Assembly (NCBI GenBank): GCA_029339195.1
Contig: JAPTJF010000034.1
Location: forward strand, 180,008-244,007
Direction: 5' to 3'
DNA: 64,000 bases
DNA from: Micractinium sp. NFX-FRZ
Taxonomy: Eukaryota; Chlorophyta; Trebouxiophyceae; Chlorellales; Chlorellaceae
Under the pieces are notes generated by a model that saw nothing but the letters and a program-made list of their open reading frames with translations, was not told the DNA's origin and made no database searches. The position numbers and the translations under genes are program-made. Below, in pieces: positions 114 to 63,687 of the stretch (its first letter is position 1; every line of letters starts with the position of its first letter).

Positions 114-612
114 CTGCGGCTGAGCCTGCCGGCAGTAGTGACAGCAGATTTGCGGCTGAACGAGCCACGCTACGCCACGCTGCCCAACATCATGAAAGCC
201 AAAAAGAAGCCGCTGGCCATGCTGAGCCTGGAGGTACGTGCTGTGTGTGCTGTGCTGGGCTGCGCTATACGTGCAGTGCATCCGCACACAGCGTGGGCAG
301 TATGGGGTGCCCGCTTAGGAACTGCCCAAAATCATGTCGGTAATAACGAAGCTACCACTGTCCATGCTGAGCCTGGAGATGCTGCGCTGTGCACGCCGCG
401 CAGGCAGTGTTTGCCGTGTCGTGCGTGCGACACATTTCACACTGCCGTGCGTGTCTTGGCTTGCTTCCCTGCCGCAGGAGCTGGGTGTGGATGCGGCCCC
501 GCGGCTGCAGACGCTGGGCGTGCAAGAGCCTGCCAAGCGCAAGGGGGGCGTCATCCTGTCCTCTCCAGCCGAACTGGTGGACCGCCTGCGGAACGAGGCC
601 AAGGTCATCTGA
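114..612 (+). CDS. ETFB: Electron transfer flavoprotein beta subunit, C-terminal part (5' end outside window)
   Basis: Two exons are visible, 114-233 and 478-612, joined in phase 0 through a GT-AG intron; TGA is at 610-612. The first encodes the ETF-beta signature TADLRLNEPRYATLPNIMKA followed by KKK. The second encodes a C-terminal segment (ELGVDAAPRLQTLGV, then a stretch ending DRLRNEAKVI) that matches the family end in position and length. In known ETF the beta subunit pairs with alpha, binds AMP, and passes electrons from acyl-CoA and related dehydrogenases to ETF-ubiquinone oxidoreductase in mitochondria. The N-terminal two thirds lie upstream of the window. The intron carries a decayed copy of the end of the first exon at about 321-400. 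Identification is very secure for this fragment. Confidence 0.95.
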
Positions 613-751
613 ACAGCATTTGAGTGATGCACTGATCGATGCACGTTGAGCGGCGTTGGGAGTGGTCGGGTCCGAAGAGCGCGACCCGTGCACGCTGCGT
701 CTCACCGCCTGCCCACGTGGCATGAGCCCGCCGCCAACCAGCCATGCGGTT

Positions 752-929
752 TGTAAGTATGCTGTATATCCTCCGCTCAACGCGCAAGCCTTGCCTGTCC
801 TTGTACCACTTCCCCAACTGTACTGCTAGTTCCTTTCAACCCCTGGTATGTTCCAGCTGTACCTCTGCCGTTCTGTGCTCAAGCAAGCCGGGCAGGGCCT
901 TGGCACCCTCGGATGCCCATCTCCTGTAA
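752..929 (+). terminator. Candidate poly(A) signals of ETFB
   Basis: TGTAA, the usual chlorophyte polyadenylation signal, occurs at 752-756 and 925-929, which is 140 and 313 bases after the ETFB stop. Either could define the 3' end. Confidence 0.4.
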
Positions 930-60032: not shown

Positions 60033-63000
60033 ATGGCGAGCGCAACTCTGGGTAGCGGCTGCAGACTGACTCGGTACGCATTAATGGAGTTAGCACGCAG
60101 TGCAGGACATTGCACCTGAATTATGATAAACGAGGACCTTGTGAGCAACCCTGCGCGCACTGCAGGCCTGCCCGCGCCACAGCCAGGTGCTTCGTTCCAG
60201 TCTCCACAACCAGCAACCGGCGCGTAGTCTCCACCCCGCTGCGCCAGGCTGCGGCGCCACCCACCAGGCAGCAGCGCAGCGGCGGCGGCGGCAGCAGCAC
60301 TGCTGCGGTGGCGGCGGCAGGCGAGGCTGCAGCTGCGGTTGCCTCGCCTGGGGACTATGTTGAGCTGGAGTACAACATCAAGCTAGATGATGGCACCATT
60401 GTGGATAGCTCGGATGCTGCGAAGGAGCTGGCGTGCTTCATCCTGGGCGGGTGAGCAGTTCCTGCGTGAGTGCGGGTCAGATGGTGGATCTTGGTGCCCC
60501 GAAGCACGTATCATCCTGAGTCACGCGTGCTGTCTGGCACACAGCCCCCATGCCTGGCACCCATGCTGTTAGCATGGAGGCCTTGCTACCCCTCCCCGCC
60601 ACCTGCGCGCACCGCTGCCATCCTTCCCCTCCCCCTATTTGCTAATCCCTCCCGGCCCCCAACTCGCGGATGGGTGTTGGCTTCCACCAGGCAGCCAGAA
60701 GCCCGCTACTTGCATTCCTGTTCTCACTTCAAACAACAGCCTCAACCTCGTTACTGCAGGAGCCGGGCGGTAGCTGGCTTCCATCAGGCAGCCGGGGGCC
60801 TGGCGGTGGGCGAGGGCCGCAAGCAGGTTGTGCGCGCCGATGATGCGTACGGTGCGTGGCTCACGCTTCAGTAGCCTGAGCGCCTGCCTGCCTGCCTGAT
60901 GTGGCCTGCTGTGGTTTGCAGGTTGGTGCCCCCGCGCAGAGTTCAACTCTGCTACTCAATTGTGGTGCAGGGGCGGTGAACGAGCTAATTTAGGAGGCGC
61001 CTGTCCCTGCAGTTTTGACTGGTATTCGTTAACCTCATCTGCAGGCCAGGCACAGTGAGCACGCGCTGCCCGTGAGAGGTGCCTGTCGCTTTGGTTGTAG
61101 CGAAGTTTTACCGAATGGATTGTGGTGCAGGCGCGGTGAACGAGGAGATGATTGTGGAGGTGCCCCGCAGCCAGGCCCCTGACGGGCTGCAGAAGGGCAT
61201 GGTGGTGCAGTTAAGCAACGGCATGCAGGTGCGGCATTTGTTTTGATTGAACTCGGCCTCCCGTCTCTCGCCTGCTTGCGCCCTCCACTGCAAGCCCTGG
61301 TGGTTGCTGTGTATGAGTGAGGCTCACATCGTCACACCTGCTGCTTTCGAGCTCGCGTCTTCCCCGTTCCAGTGCCTGCCTCCCTCCTGCCTGCCTGCTT
61401 GCCCCAGGCCACAGTGGTAGACATTGACGATGAGGGCGTGACGATTGATGCCAACCACCCGCTGGCGGGGCGGGACCTCACCTTTGATGTGCGGCTCACG
61501 CGGCACATCCCCGCCGCTCAGCTGGAGACCGCGGTCTTTGGGGCGGGCTGCTTCTGGTGAGGCGGGGAGATAAGGTGCATTGGGCAAGTGTGTGGCTTCT
61601 TGCAAGGCGGGCAAGCAGGGCGGAGGAAGTGCTTGGTGCGAGCCAAACGGCTGGGGCAGGCGGGGTGGGGGGGCTGGGGCGCGGGCAGCAGGATGCACAG
61701 CATGCATGCTTGCACGCTGGCTGGAGGCCGCGATGTTTGGGACGGGCTGCTTCTGGGGACGCTAGGGGGGCGGGGCAGCAGCACCGGAGAAGTGCGTTCT
61801 GCTTGCTTTCCAGCCATCTGCCTCCTTGCTTGTGTGTTCCACTCTTCTGCTGCCCTCTTGCCCCTTAGGTCCAGCCACCTGCCCTCTTGCCCCATGTTCC
61901 CGCCAAATAAAAGGAACCACCGATGGATGATCTCTTTGTTACCCGCAGGAGCATAGATGTGTTGCTTGGCCTCGTAGGTGCCCTCCGCACCAATGCTCGG
62001 CCTGTGCTCGGCCTTGTTTATTCTGACTCTGTAAAGCCCCCCCCTCTCACCTTGTTCTAGGAGCGTGGAGCTGGCTTTTCAGCGGGTGCCGGGCGTGGTG
62101 CAGACGTCCGTAGGTTACGCCCAGGGCCAAACCAAGAACCCAACATATGAGGCCGTGAGTGTTTGTGGTAATGCTTGTCTATTGTTGCTCTGGAGGAGGG
62201 CTGGATGGGTTCAATGCCCCCGCTGTGGGGCTTTTCGCGGTACGGCTGAGTTTGGTGGGCGGCATGCTGGCAGGCAGGGGTGCAGGCATGGGGGGCTTGA
62301 GTTTGCGTCGCCGACGGCTGTCTGCCCTTGCATTGGATGTGCACAGCTGCGTGATTGCCTGCCCAGCATCCTGCCGCCGCTGCCGGCCACCCCAACCACC
62401 CACGTTGTTAAACGTGCCTCCCCACATGCCTGATGTAGGTGTGCTCAGGCACAACAGGCCACAACGAGGTGGTGCAGGTCGTGTATGCGCCGGCAGAGGT
62501 GTGTCGTAGGTACCATGCACGTCCGTGGCTGAGTGCTGCAGTGATGTGGCAGCGCTTGCGCCCCTCCCCTGCCGGTTTCCACGCCCCCGATCCTGCCTCC
62601 TACCCTTCCTGCCCTTGCGGCCACCTCAAACCCTCCACGATCGCAAACTCAAACTGTACAGCGCTGCGCTGTGCCGTGCTGTGCAGGTGCCTTTTGAGAA
62701 GCTATTGGATGTGTTTTGGGGCAAGCACGACCCCACCACGCTCAACCGCCAGGGCAACGACGTGGGAACGCAGTACAGGTGTGCGGGGAAGGGACGGGGG
62801 ATCCAGCACGATGTGGAGCAGGGGGGCAGTAAAGATGGGGCACGGCTTCAGCAGAGCAGCGGCGGGTGCTGCTGCCTGCACATGGCATTACGCTGTTTGC
62901 TGCCGCCGCCTGCACAAGGCAGCACACCGATGTACTCTGTCAGGCATCTGAGCGCCCACGCAGACTTCACACCACGCCCACACACACGCTCTTCGCCACC

Positions 63001-63687
63001 CTACCACCCTACCACGCCCCCTATCACACATGGCACCTTGTACACCCCGCTGAGGGGCCCCGTCCCCATCTCAGTCCTCACCTGCTGTGAGCACTCCCCG
63101 CTTCTCTCACCTACACATGTGCAATCCTCACCCCCGTGCGCAGGTCTGGCATCTACTACACCACTGAAGAGCAGCGTCAGGCTGCCGAGGCTTCCAAGGC
63201 CGCAATGAATGAGAAGCTTGGAGGCAATGTGGTGACGGAAATCGAGCCGGTAAGAAGAGTGACACGTTGCACTGATGGTGGTTCCAGTGCGGGGAGGTTG
63301 GCACAGCCAGTGGGTGCTGGCTGCGGGGTGGGTGGGTGGGGTCGGACTTGTTTCCACTTCGTCCCAGCGCCGCGGCTGGCGGACTACCTGCAAATCACAG
63401 CCTCTGCACCTCTTGTTTGCTGAATTCTGCTCTGATGCACTTTCTCTGGCACTGTGGGCTTTTTTGACCCCTGTTCCGCCTGCCGTATCACTGTGCGCAT
63501 TGGCGCTACTGACACACCCGCCAACTGTTCCGCCTGCCATGCTATGCTTGCTGTACTCTGGCCGCAGGTGGCACAATTCTACGAGGGAGAGGAGTACCAT
63601 CAGCAGTACCTTGCCAAGGGTGGCAGGTCTGGCCAGCCGCAGAGCCCAGCCAAGGGTTGCACCGACCCGATACGCTGCTACGGCTGA
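60033..63687 (+). CDS. SlyD-type FKBP prolyl isomerase fused to peptide methionine sulfoxide reductase A, 378 aa
   Basis: Ten exons in phase: 60033-60073, 60166-60450, 60760-60851, 61131-61228, 61408-61556, 62061-62154, 62439-62498, 62687-62778, 63144-63249, 63568-63687 (TGA 63685-63687). The start gives an organelle transit peptide (MASATLGSGCRLTR, then Arg/Thr/Ala-rich). Residues about 65-205 are FKBP of the SlyD kind: VELEYNIKLDDGTIVDSS, VGEGRKQVVRADDAYG, with the inserted flap GLQKGMVVQLSNGMQATVVD. The second half is MsrA: AVFGAGCFWSVELAFQRVPG with the catalytic Cys in GCFW, GTTGHNEVVQVVYAP, FWGKHDPTTLNRQGNDVGTQ, YRSGIYYTTEEQ, and resolving cysteines in KGCTDPIRCYG. MsrA reduces methionine-S-sulfoxide using thioredoxin; the FKBP half may present unfolded substrates. 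The fusion is read through continuous exons, with no start or stop between. Confidence 0.93.
60664..60810 (+). repeat. Duplicated acceptor region of FKBP-MsrA exon 3
   Basis: Echo 60664-60712 and real 60765-60810 share TGGCTTCCAxCAGGCAGCC. Confidence 0.9.
60959..61170 (+). repeat. Duplicated acceptor region of FKBP-MsrA exon 4
   Basis: Echo 60959-61012 and real 61119-61170 share ATTGTGGTGCAGGxGCGGTG then AACGAG. The echo keeps the AG acceptor but has an in-frame stop. Confidence 0.92.
61519..61760 (+). repeat. Duplicated end of MsrA catalytic exon (GCFW)
   Basis: Real 61519-61560 (LETAVFGAGCFW) and echo 61719-61760 (LEAAMFGTGCFW), period 200 bases. The echo donor gt has become gg. Confidence 0.95.

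What the first reader, a model, noticed from the sequence alone, without database searches (positions are those of the whole stretch)
114..63687. Introns across the window contain decayed tandem copies of the exon ends they flank
In at least 10 of 15 genes (ETFB, the beta-trefoil-like gene, lumen protein, GSNOR, the mitochondrial-type unknown, GT90-A, RAD21, MDH, FKBP-MsrA, and the 3' end of the RraA-like gene) I find degenerate copies of exon termini, often with the adjoining splice site, 70-220 bases away inside the neighbouring intron (or 3' UTR). Some occur in three or four copies. Both donor and acceptor ends are affected, and many echoes have lost the gt or gained stops, so they are not simple alternative exons. 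This suggests a recurrent local tandem-duplication process acting across exon boundaries that enlarges, shifts or creates introns. It is not the classic AGGT model, in which the intron would hold the opposite exon's edge. I do not know of a description of such a pervasive pattern.
Basis: partly seen in the sequence, partly recalled or inferred. Interest (0 to 1): 0.88.

Follow-up and report, generated by a model that had tools for sequence, protein, structure and literature searches.

The report
Exon-end echoes inside neighbouring introns
In the sampled part of this intron-rich (probably green-algal) genome about one intron in six holds a short, decayed, same-direction copy of the end of an exon beside it, most often 75 to 135 bases away; the copies were likely made by short-range DNA copying during repair, and why the similarity mostly stops at the splice site is still unexplained.

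Summary
In 314 kb (window plus 25 stretches of 10 kb), 89 of 576 predicted introns hold a direct copy of a flanking exon end (window 28 of 97). Non-adjacent introns match 40-60 times less often; at strict score there are 83 direct and 0 inverted local pairs. Lags peak at 90-119 bp, with a bump at 200-224. The AGGT intron-gain model is not met: lag equals intron length in 2 of 99 pairs. Echoes diverge like unconstrained copies. Tandem duplication explains only part: 24 of 99 pairs (class A) run into the intron and fit a neutral tandem model; 75 (class B) match the exon end plus splice consensus, then fall to near background, which neutral tandem duplication does not reproduce. Intron-only pairs are about fourfold too rare (15 of 117). 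Best reading: short-range copying in two forms, full tandem and exon-limited, then neutral decay. One tandem process with very fast intron decay is not excluded. Why exon ends are the source is open.

The parts
322..391 (+). echo of ETFB exon end 180-233 (donor side) in its intron 234-477, lag 142, class B
   Evidence: 76% over 70 columns, score 49
2494..2521 (-). echo of trefoil-like gene exon start (2276-2303), lag 218, class B
   Evidence: 89% over 28, score 41
11503..11550 (+). echo of DUF6816/lumen gene exon end (11332-11380), lag 171, class B; donor lost
   Evidence: 80%, score 44
12001..12059 (+). echo of lumen gene exon end (11865-11923), lag 136, class B
   Evidence: 78%, score 53
17526..17553 (-). 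echo of GSNOR exon start (17420-17447), lag 106, class B
   Evidence: 89%, score 41; exon supported by PDB alignment
17691..17750 (-). echo of GSNOR exon end (17894-17951) with donor and 17 nt of intron, lag 203, class A
   Evidence: 83%, score 62
18619..18656 (-). echo of GSNOR exon start (18516-18553) with acceptor, lag 103, class B
   Evidence: 89%, score 56
18838..18937 (-). echo of GSNOR exon end plus intron start (18975-19077), lag 137, class A
   Evidence: 83% over 103, score 114
19299..19346 (-). first echo of GSNOR exon start (19184-19230), lag 115
   Evidence: 83%, score 52
19399..19474 (-). second echo of the same GSNOR exon start (19158-19234), lag 241, class B
   Evidence: 75%, score 55
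21490..21557 (-). echo of GSNOR exon end plus intron start (21706-21774), lag 216, class A
   Evidence: 94%, score 114
24691..24718 (+). echo of RraA-like gene 3' end (24591-24618) downstream of the coding sequence, lag 100
   Evidence: 86% over 28, score 36
25622..25644 (-). echo of exon start 25536-25557, lag 86, class B
   Evidence: 91% over 23, score 32
26077..26118 (-). echo of exon start 25961-26001, lag 116, class B
   Evidence: 79%, score 35
26232..26265 (-). echo of exon end 26424-26458, lag 192, class B (same intron as the echo at 26077-26118, so both flanking exons are echoed)
   Evidence: 80%, score 31
26624..26663 (-). echo of exon start 26512-26551, lag 112, class B
   Evidence: 80%, score 40
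27386..27407 (-). echo of exon end 27556-27576, lag 170, class B
   Evidence: 91% over 22, score 30, marginal
31748..31806 (-). echo of exon start plus intron end (31644-31703), lag 104, class A
   Evidence: 80%, score 56
35018..35037 (-). echo of exon start 34948-34967, lag 70, class B
   Evidence: 90% over 20, score 30, marginal
44170..44191 (-). echo of exon end 44390-44411, lag 220, class B; another copy at 44304-44330 (lag 92)
   Evidence: 91% over 22, score 34
44568..44612 (-). echo of exon start 44485-44529, lag 83, class B
   Evidence: 80%, score 45
44953..44999 (-). echo of exon start 44823-44869, lag 130, class B
   Evidence: 81%, score 43
45795..45819 (-). echo of exon end 45879-45903, lag 84, class B
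   Evidence: 84% over 25, score 30, marginal
46910..46947 (-). echo of exon end 46982-47019, lag 72, class B
   Evidence: 79%, score 36
48068..48109 (-). echo of exon end 48172-48214, lag 104, class B
   Evidence: 79%, score 37
48590..48664 (-). echo of exon end 48710-48781, lag 120, class B
   Evidence: 71% over 75, score 38
52461..52519 (-). echo of MDH exon end 52670-52728, lag 209, class B
   Evidence: 83%, score 68; exon supported by PDB alignment
53006..53050 (-). echo of MDH exon end 53105-53149, lag 99, class B
   Evidence: 82%, score 50
53841..53862 (-). echo of MDH exon end 53917-53938, lag 76, class B
   Evidence: 91% over 22, score 34
54132..54181 (-). echo of MDH exon start 54004-54050, lag 128, class B
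   Evidence: 76%, score 38
60678..60696 (+). echo of FKBP-MsrA exon start 60775-60793, lag 97, class B
   Evidence: 95% over 19, score 33
60959..60984 (+). echo of FKBP-MsrA exon start plus acceptor (61119-61144), lag 160, class B
   Evidence: 96% over 26, score 47
61720..61762 (+). echo of FKBP-MsrA exon end 61521-61563, lag 199, donor GT lost, class B
   Evidence: 86%, score 56

Best explanation
Introns here carry direct local copies of the ends of the exons next to them, at a preferred lag of about 100 bp, and these were likely laid down by short-range DNA copying during break repair or template switching near splice junctions and then likely left to decay without function. Two forms are seen. 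In class A (24 of 99 pairs) the matching stretch runs more than 15 nt into the intron; exon and intron parts have diverged as a neutral tandem duplication predicts (shown). In class B (75 of 99) the match covers the exon end and the 4-5 bases of splice consensus and on average falls to near background just beyond (shown); inferred: here only the exon end was copied. Inferred filter: a copy in the intron leaves the mRNA intact as long as the original splice site is used, so copies are tolerated. Inferred history: repeated events, together with room, make echo-bearing introns longer. Unexplained: why exon ends, not intron interiors, are the usual source, and why the lag is about 100 bp.
For: Direct-only local excess at 50-300 bp in 264 kb: 83 direct and 0 inverted at score 44 or more, 168 and 7 at score 30 or more. 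Own-intron against other-intron test. Lag peak 90-119 bp (37 of 114 non-redundant ungapped pairs), trough at 150-199 (4), bump at 200-224 (8); pairs of lag 60-300 are mostly exon-intron (68 of 86), those under 60 mostly intron-intron (19 of 24). Sixteen of 90 ends have 2-5 echoes, often about 100 bp apart. Exon copy edge within 15 nt of the junction in 52 of 54 donor and 38 of 45 acceptor pairs. Class A identity: exon 0.88, intron 0.85-0.87 (22 of the 24 pairs); a neutral model, with the same selection, gives 0.887 and 0.836. Class B identity by position (74 of 75 pairs): about 0.7 over the last 12 exon bases; donor 0.5-0.72 over +1 to +5, then about 0.3; acceptor 0.7-0.8 over -1 to -4, about 0.4 over -5 to -9, then about 0.3. 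Class B intron lengths fit insertion of about 38 nt better than insertion of the whole lag (log-likelihood difference 17.8; KS p 0.066 and 0.010). Class B mismatch rates at codon positions 1, 2, 3 are 0.139, 0.135, 0.205 and the lag modulo 3 is 30/37/32, so echoes do not look like constrained coding exons. Small tandem duplications from breaks are established elsewhere (PMC8355091, abstract and introduction read).
Against: No relative or population data show any event, so direction and mechanism are inferred. A general repair process should hit introns too, yet intron-only pairs are 15 of 117 and wholly intergenic clusters 0 where about 13 were expected (lag 50-400). Flanks of exon-limited echoes keep an intron-end-like composition (pyrimidine 0.62 against 0.53 control; G 0.41 against 0.32; here grouped by flank score, 31 acceptor and 37 donor), not expected of a copy dropped at a random place. 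A faint residual intron-side similarity in class B (mean z 0.34, p 0.03; 0.47, p 0.001, with another control; none in an ungapped test that also barely saw class A donors) leaves room for old, fast-decayed tandem duplication. One rate (intron part decaying 4 times faster) gives a class B share of 0.63-0.73 (observed 0.73-0.76) and an intron-only share of 0.19 (observed 0.13), though it misses the class A exon identity (0.96 predicted, 0.88 seen).
Confidence: 0.45

Rival explanations
1. One process only: boundary-spanning tandem duplications of about 100-bp units, where the intron-derived half becomes unrecognisable about four times faster than the exon-derived half.
For: Simulation with a fourfold faster intron gives a class B share of 0.63-0.73 (observed 0.73-0.76) and an intron-only share of 0.19 (observed 0.13). 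Lag and exon extent are alike in classes A and B. Weak residual flank similarity. Intron-end composition kept beside echoes.
Against: Class A pairs would then show about 96% exon identity; they show 88%, with intron parts about as similar. Introns with a class A echo are longer than those with class B only (436 against 313 nt, 23 and 66 introns, p 0.001). Some class B pairs are near identical (L010 4981-5021/5085-5125, 40 of 41 bases) with flanks that do not align significantly.
Confidence: 0.25
2. Echoes are kept by selection: alternative splice sites, decoys or poison exons that need to resemble the exon end.
For: Exon-limited similarity including splice consensus; splice-site-like flanks; concentration at junctions.
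Against: Mismatches are spread over codon positions with only a modest third-position excess, lag modulo 3 is uniform, and gaps occur in 44 of 99 pairs. Canonical dinucleotides in class B are not clearly better kept than exon bases: donor 17 of 40 (20 expected), acceptor 21 of 34 (15.6 expected); the acceptor figure leans slightly towards this rival.
Confidence: 0.12
3. Old tandem duplications whose exon and echo copies are kept alike by short-tract gene conversion while the intron parts drift apart.
For: Explains similar lags of the two classes, the recent look of the exon part and the lost intron part; faint flank similarity.
Against: Needs conversion over some 20-45 bp; flank composition is better kept than expected for fully drifted sequence.
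Confidence: 0.1
4. Chance, low complexity, gene-model error or misassembly.
For: Gene models are from my own self-trained finder, which merges genes and made at least one false micro-exon (22002-22025). No reads were available.
Against: Non-adjacent, reversed, reverse-complement and inverted controls are near zero; GSNOR and MDH models align with solved structures; copies differ by up to 30% with a third-position excess, unlike read errors; five of five queried regions have a single match in the assembly, so no second haplotype shows there.
Confidence: 0.03

Closest known systems
Tandem duplication across an intron-exon boundary in a potato RdRp gene (PMC4974935, passages read)
   Same: Duplicated unit crosses the intron-exon boundary and carries branch site, polypyrimidine tract, acceptor and exon start, as in class A acceptor-type echoes here.
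   Different: There one event made a new intron. Here dozens of introns are affected, the extra copy lies inside the intron, and most copies are exon-limited.
[quoted passage not shown] review PMC3443670 and Drosophila study PMC2891723, passages read; Gao and Lynch 2009 known to me only as cited there and by recall, not held)
   Same: Exon sequence duplicated in tandem ends up in intron.
   Different: Lag equals intron length in only 2 of 99 pairs; whether any of these introns is new could not be tested.
Small tandem duplications from break fill-in (PMC8355091, abstract and introduction read)
   Same: Local, direct, no inverted copies; class A fits.
   Different: That paper calls them the most common short (under 100 bp) insertions in the human genome and, in what I read, does not tie them to exon ends; class B does not look contiguous.
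Tandem exon duplication and mutually exclusive exons (PMC9013439, Results section and passages read)
   Same: Exon-like sequence in a neighbouring intron. That study reports about 2% (human), 0.08% (fly), 0.06% (worm) of exonic nucleotides with homologues at 80% identity; my different method gives 2.56% here (2445 of 95601 nt, within 400 bp).
   Different: Here exon ends: 1 of 99 exon-intron pairs reaches the far exon end, and frame is not kept. Whole-exon copies that my finder called as exons (among 24 exon-exon clusters) were not examined.
Introners (PMC9860276, search listing with start of abstract only)
   Same: Widespread source of intron sequence.
   Different: Five of five queried echo regions had no other match in the genome.

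Membership tests
AGGT tandem-duplication intron gain | lag between copies equals intron length | tested here: not met
   within 12 nt in 0 of 54 donor and 2 of 45 acceptor pairs
AGGT tandem-duplication intron gain | intron absent at that position in relatives | not testable with these tools
   no related genome is held (output)
Small tandem duplications by break repair | direct orientation, local | tested here: met
   83 direct and 0 inverted within 50-300 bp at score 44 or more
Small tandem duplications by break repair | copies contiguous, so homology spans the whole unit | tested here: inconclusive
   class A (24 of 99, defined by a match reaching more than 15 nt into the intron): intron-side mean z 5.05; class B (66 of 75 tested): mean z 0.34
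Small tandem duplications by break repair | placed without regard to exon boundaries | tested here: not met
   intron-only share 15 of 117 against 49-56% simulated; exon copy edges cluster at junctions
Tandem exon duplication / mutually exclusive exons | whole exon with both splice sites copied | tested here: not met
   0 of 54 and 1 of 45 exon-intron pairs reach the far exon end; 24 exon-exon clusters were not examined for this
Tandem exon duplication / mutually exclusive exons | coding constraint and frame on the extra copy | tested here: not met
   codon-position mismatches 0.139/0.135/0.205; lag modulo 3 uniform
Tandem exon duplication / mutually exclusive exons | use in transcripts | not testable with these tools
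   no RNA-seq
Introners | similar sequence in many introns | tested here: not met
   five of five DNA queries match only themselves; that search skips simple repeats and very common words

The most novel reading that the evidence does not exclude
A copying process anchored on splice junctions deposits the last or first 20-45 bases of an exon, with its splice consensus, about 100 bases into the adjacent intron, over and over across a genome: a source of intron sequence distinct from tandem duplication, intron gain, introners and exon duplication.
Probability: 0.2. Interest if true: 0.9.

Novelty: new variant of a known kind. Interest (0 to 1): 0.62.

Why it matters
How introns grow and turn over is known mostly from single cases. 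Here about one intron in six, and 59 of 206 introns of 300 nt or more, carry a traceable event, so the mutation process, its preferred length near 100 bp and its tie to splice junctions become measurable in one genome. If the exon-limited class is really copied that way, it points to a link between splice junctions (or the chromatin or transcription state there) and local DNA copying. If instead intron ends decay four times faster than exon-derived sequence lying in the same introns, that is itself a strange rate difference. Either way, gene finders can mistake such echoes for exons, as mine probably did at 22002-22025.

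Tried and rejected
Neutral uniform tandem duplication with visibility bias (the exon copy is constrained, so exon-intron pairs stay visible longer): rejected as a full account; it gives 41-56% intron-only pairs and homology running into the intron.

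Homogeneous fast intron decay: fits shares but not class A identities; kept as a rival.

mRNA or cDNA origin: in 3 of 66 class B pairs the echo flank matches the neighbouring exon edge at score 26 or more (0 in controls), but the hits printed are the neighbouring exon itself lying within reach, or echoes of the opposite exon end.

Echo as micro-exon with a second splice site at its far edge: no excess of AG or GT there.

Spacer as patchwork of nearby sequence: spacers are less similar to their surroundings than random intron pieces (70 spacers). Spacer from elsewhere in the genome: single hits only, four loci.

Diverged-haplotype misassembly: changed codons in echoes are mostly nonsynonymous (269 of 412) and the five queried regions are single copy.

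Displaced intron homology in class B: 7 of 72 flanks match elsewhere in their intron at score 26 or more, against 17 of 22 in class A (control 0).

A same-intron control returned NaN and was not used. One search printed '99 introns, both ends 0'; that was an off-by-one key. One search gives 91 distinct keys, 89 of them matching predicted introns (two pairs unmatched), 8 with both ends echoed. Per-locus echo counts and length-class counts are pair counts. Of 155 pair clusters, 99 entered the exon-intron analysis (the rest were intron-only, exon-exon, mixed, or had an echo less than 80% intronic), and 90 of those the junction profiles (edge of locus, or match stopping more than 20 nt short of the junction). 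Of eight HSP90 seed loci, two (L005, L006) read in the wrong strand and were left out of training.

A viral-contig scan for GSNOR relatives found none.

Full report
What was examined. The window is G000:C34:180008-244007 of a 66-Mb assembly in 838 contigs. I used the window plus 20 stretches of 10 kb (contigs C1-C20) and later five more (C21-C25): 264 kb, then 314 kb, about 0.5% of the assembly.

Local similarity without annotation. Self-blastn of the window shows direct pairs at 50-300 bp roughly 10 to 40 times denser than background, with no inverted excess (45 against 2 at score 30 or more). In 264 kb, 83 direct and 0 inverted pairs reach score 44 at 50-300 bp (168 and 7 at score 30). A tile test (50-bp tiles, score 32, next 300 bp downstream) gives hits for 67 of 2058 coding, 182 of 5035 intron and 4 of 1336 intergenic tiles; reversed-sequence controls give 0, 5 and 0.

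Gene models. I trained a small hidden-Markov gene finder on itself from HSP90 exon seeds. It converged on donor CAG|GTGAG and acceptor TGCAG|G and predicts 576 introns (median 251 nt). Of 12 window models I sent six to Pfam: ADH domains, histone H2A, MsrA with FKBP, RraA-like and DUF6816 were found; the ETFB fragment gave no hit. GSNOR aligns over residues 1-389 and MDH over 25-384 with solved structures. The models merge some genes (MDH and RAD21 are in one model) and contain one false 24-nt exon in GSNOR (22002-22025), which adds residues absent from the solved relatives and lies beside a duplicated pair (21838-21898/22008-22070).

Exon ends (25-60 nt) score 28 or more against their own intron in 40 of 436 donor and 38 of 438 acceptor cases; other introns give 18 of 8720 and 13 of 8760; the own intron reversed gives 0 and 2, reverse-complemented 1 and 2. 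The stretches outside the window alone repeat this (36 of 415 and 29 of 415 against 5 of 2858 and 3 of 2788). Echoes lie in 89 of 576 introns and 20 of 26 loci. Loci differ strongly: counted as pairs per introns, from 0 of 23 (L031) to 10 of 22 (L032).

Anatomy. Of 155 clusters of pairs (lag 50-400) in 314 kb, 102 are exon-intron (64 plus 38 partly spanning), 15 intron-only, 24 exon-exon, 14 other, 0 wholly intergenic; sliding the annotation gives 54 intron-only and 13 intergenic; without the repeat-rich locus L020 the exon-intron and intron-only counts are 93 and 12. With coding sequence masked, 54 noncoding pairs remain, 18 of them from L020; 31% touch an exon end within 10 nt against 13% when slid, which also counts pairs cut at the mask. 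In 99 exon-intron pairs the echo always lies in the adjacent intron, the exon copy ends within 15 nt of the junction in 90, the lag equals intron length in 2, and the far end of the exon is reached in 1. Whole-exon copies called as exons by my finder would fall among the exon-exon clusters, which I did not examine. Lags peak at 90-119 bp with a bump at 200-224; the long lags belong mostly to exon-intron pairs and the short ones to intron repeats. Sixteen of 90 ends have two to five echoes. One array (L020, about 1163-1777) has units of about 106 bp that are 98-100% identical.

Two classes. Class A pairs (24; match reaching more than 15 nt into the intron) have exon identity 0.88 and intron identity 0.85-0.87, as a neutral tandem duplication predicts under the same selection (0.887 and 0.836). 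Class B pairs (75) show, on average, identity near 0.7 over the last exon bases, 0.5-0.8 over +1 to +5 or -1 to -4, then about 0.3 (acceptor side about 0.4 as far as -9). For pairs of 88% identity or more, neutral simulations give class B in 6-15% (4-9% of those with 30 or more columns); the data give 28 of 34 (11 of 17). Making intron sequence decay four times faster repairs the shares but predicts 0.96 exon identity in class A. Introns with class B only (313 nt) are shorter than those with class A (436 nt; p 0.001), and class B intron lengths fit a short insertion better than insertion of the whole lag. Residual intron-side similarity in class B is faint (mean z 0.34, p 0.03; 0.47, p 0.001; none in an ungapped test that was itself weak on class A donors), and the sequence beside exon-limited echoes keeps a splice-end composition. 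I cannot settle whether class B was copied that way or decayed unevenly.

Function. Mismatches between exon and echo in class B are spread over codon positions with a modest third-position excess, as for one free and one constrained copy (0.139/0.135/0.205). Lags are uniform modulo 3; in-frame stops occur in 5 of 99 echoes. Canonical splice dinucleotides in class B are kept about as often as exon bases (donor 17 of 40, 20 expected; acceptor 21 of 34, 15.6 expected). I see no sign that echoes are used as coding exons; decoy functions are not excluded.

Literature. Eight searches for reports of this pattern, plus one on break-repair tandem duplications, in an open-access library listed no title or abstract opening that describes pervasive exon-end copies in adjacent introns; I saw listings, and passages or sections of six papers. 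Subscription papers, including Gao and Lynch 2009, were not available. The nearest single case is a potato RdRp intron (PMC4974935, passages). A published survey gives 0.08% and 0.06% of exonic nucleotides with homologues at 80% identity in fly and worm and about 2% in human (PMC9013439, Results section read); my different method gives 2.56% here within 400 bp.

Verdict. Observation confirmed; interpretation partly right. It is a new variant of known local duplication, with an exon-limited majority class that no simple model I tested explains in full.

Noticed in passing
L020 (G000:C12:100001-110000), about 1163-1777: Tandem array of a unit of about 106 bp (98-100% identical) that includes the start of the next exon; five echoes of that exon start, four steps near 106 bp and one of 150, apparently a very recent class A expansion.
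   Followed up: partly
window 22002-22025: My gene finder called a 24-nt exon that adds about 8 residues absent from solved GSNOR relatives; it lies beside a duplicated pair and is probably an echo mistaken for an exon.
   Followed up: partly
all sampled loci: Echoes cluster by gene: L032, L024, L020 (9-10 pairs per 20-23 introns) and the window are rich, while L011, L017, L019, L022, L031, L033 have none. Cause not tested.
   Followed up: no
predicted intergenic sequence (38 kb of 314 kb): No pair cluster of lag 50-400 falls wholly in predicted intergenic sequence although about 13 would be expected if placement ignored annotation; two short-lag (30-60) pairs do.
   Followed up: partly
window 8095-8166: A perfect 36-bp tandem duplication (two copies, 100%) in sequence with no predicted gene.
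   Followed up: no
sampled introns and HSP90 exons: Intron starts next to echoes are G-rich and intron ends C/T-rich; third codon positions in the HSP90 seed exons are about 94% G or C.
   Followed up: no
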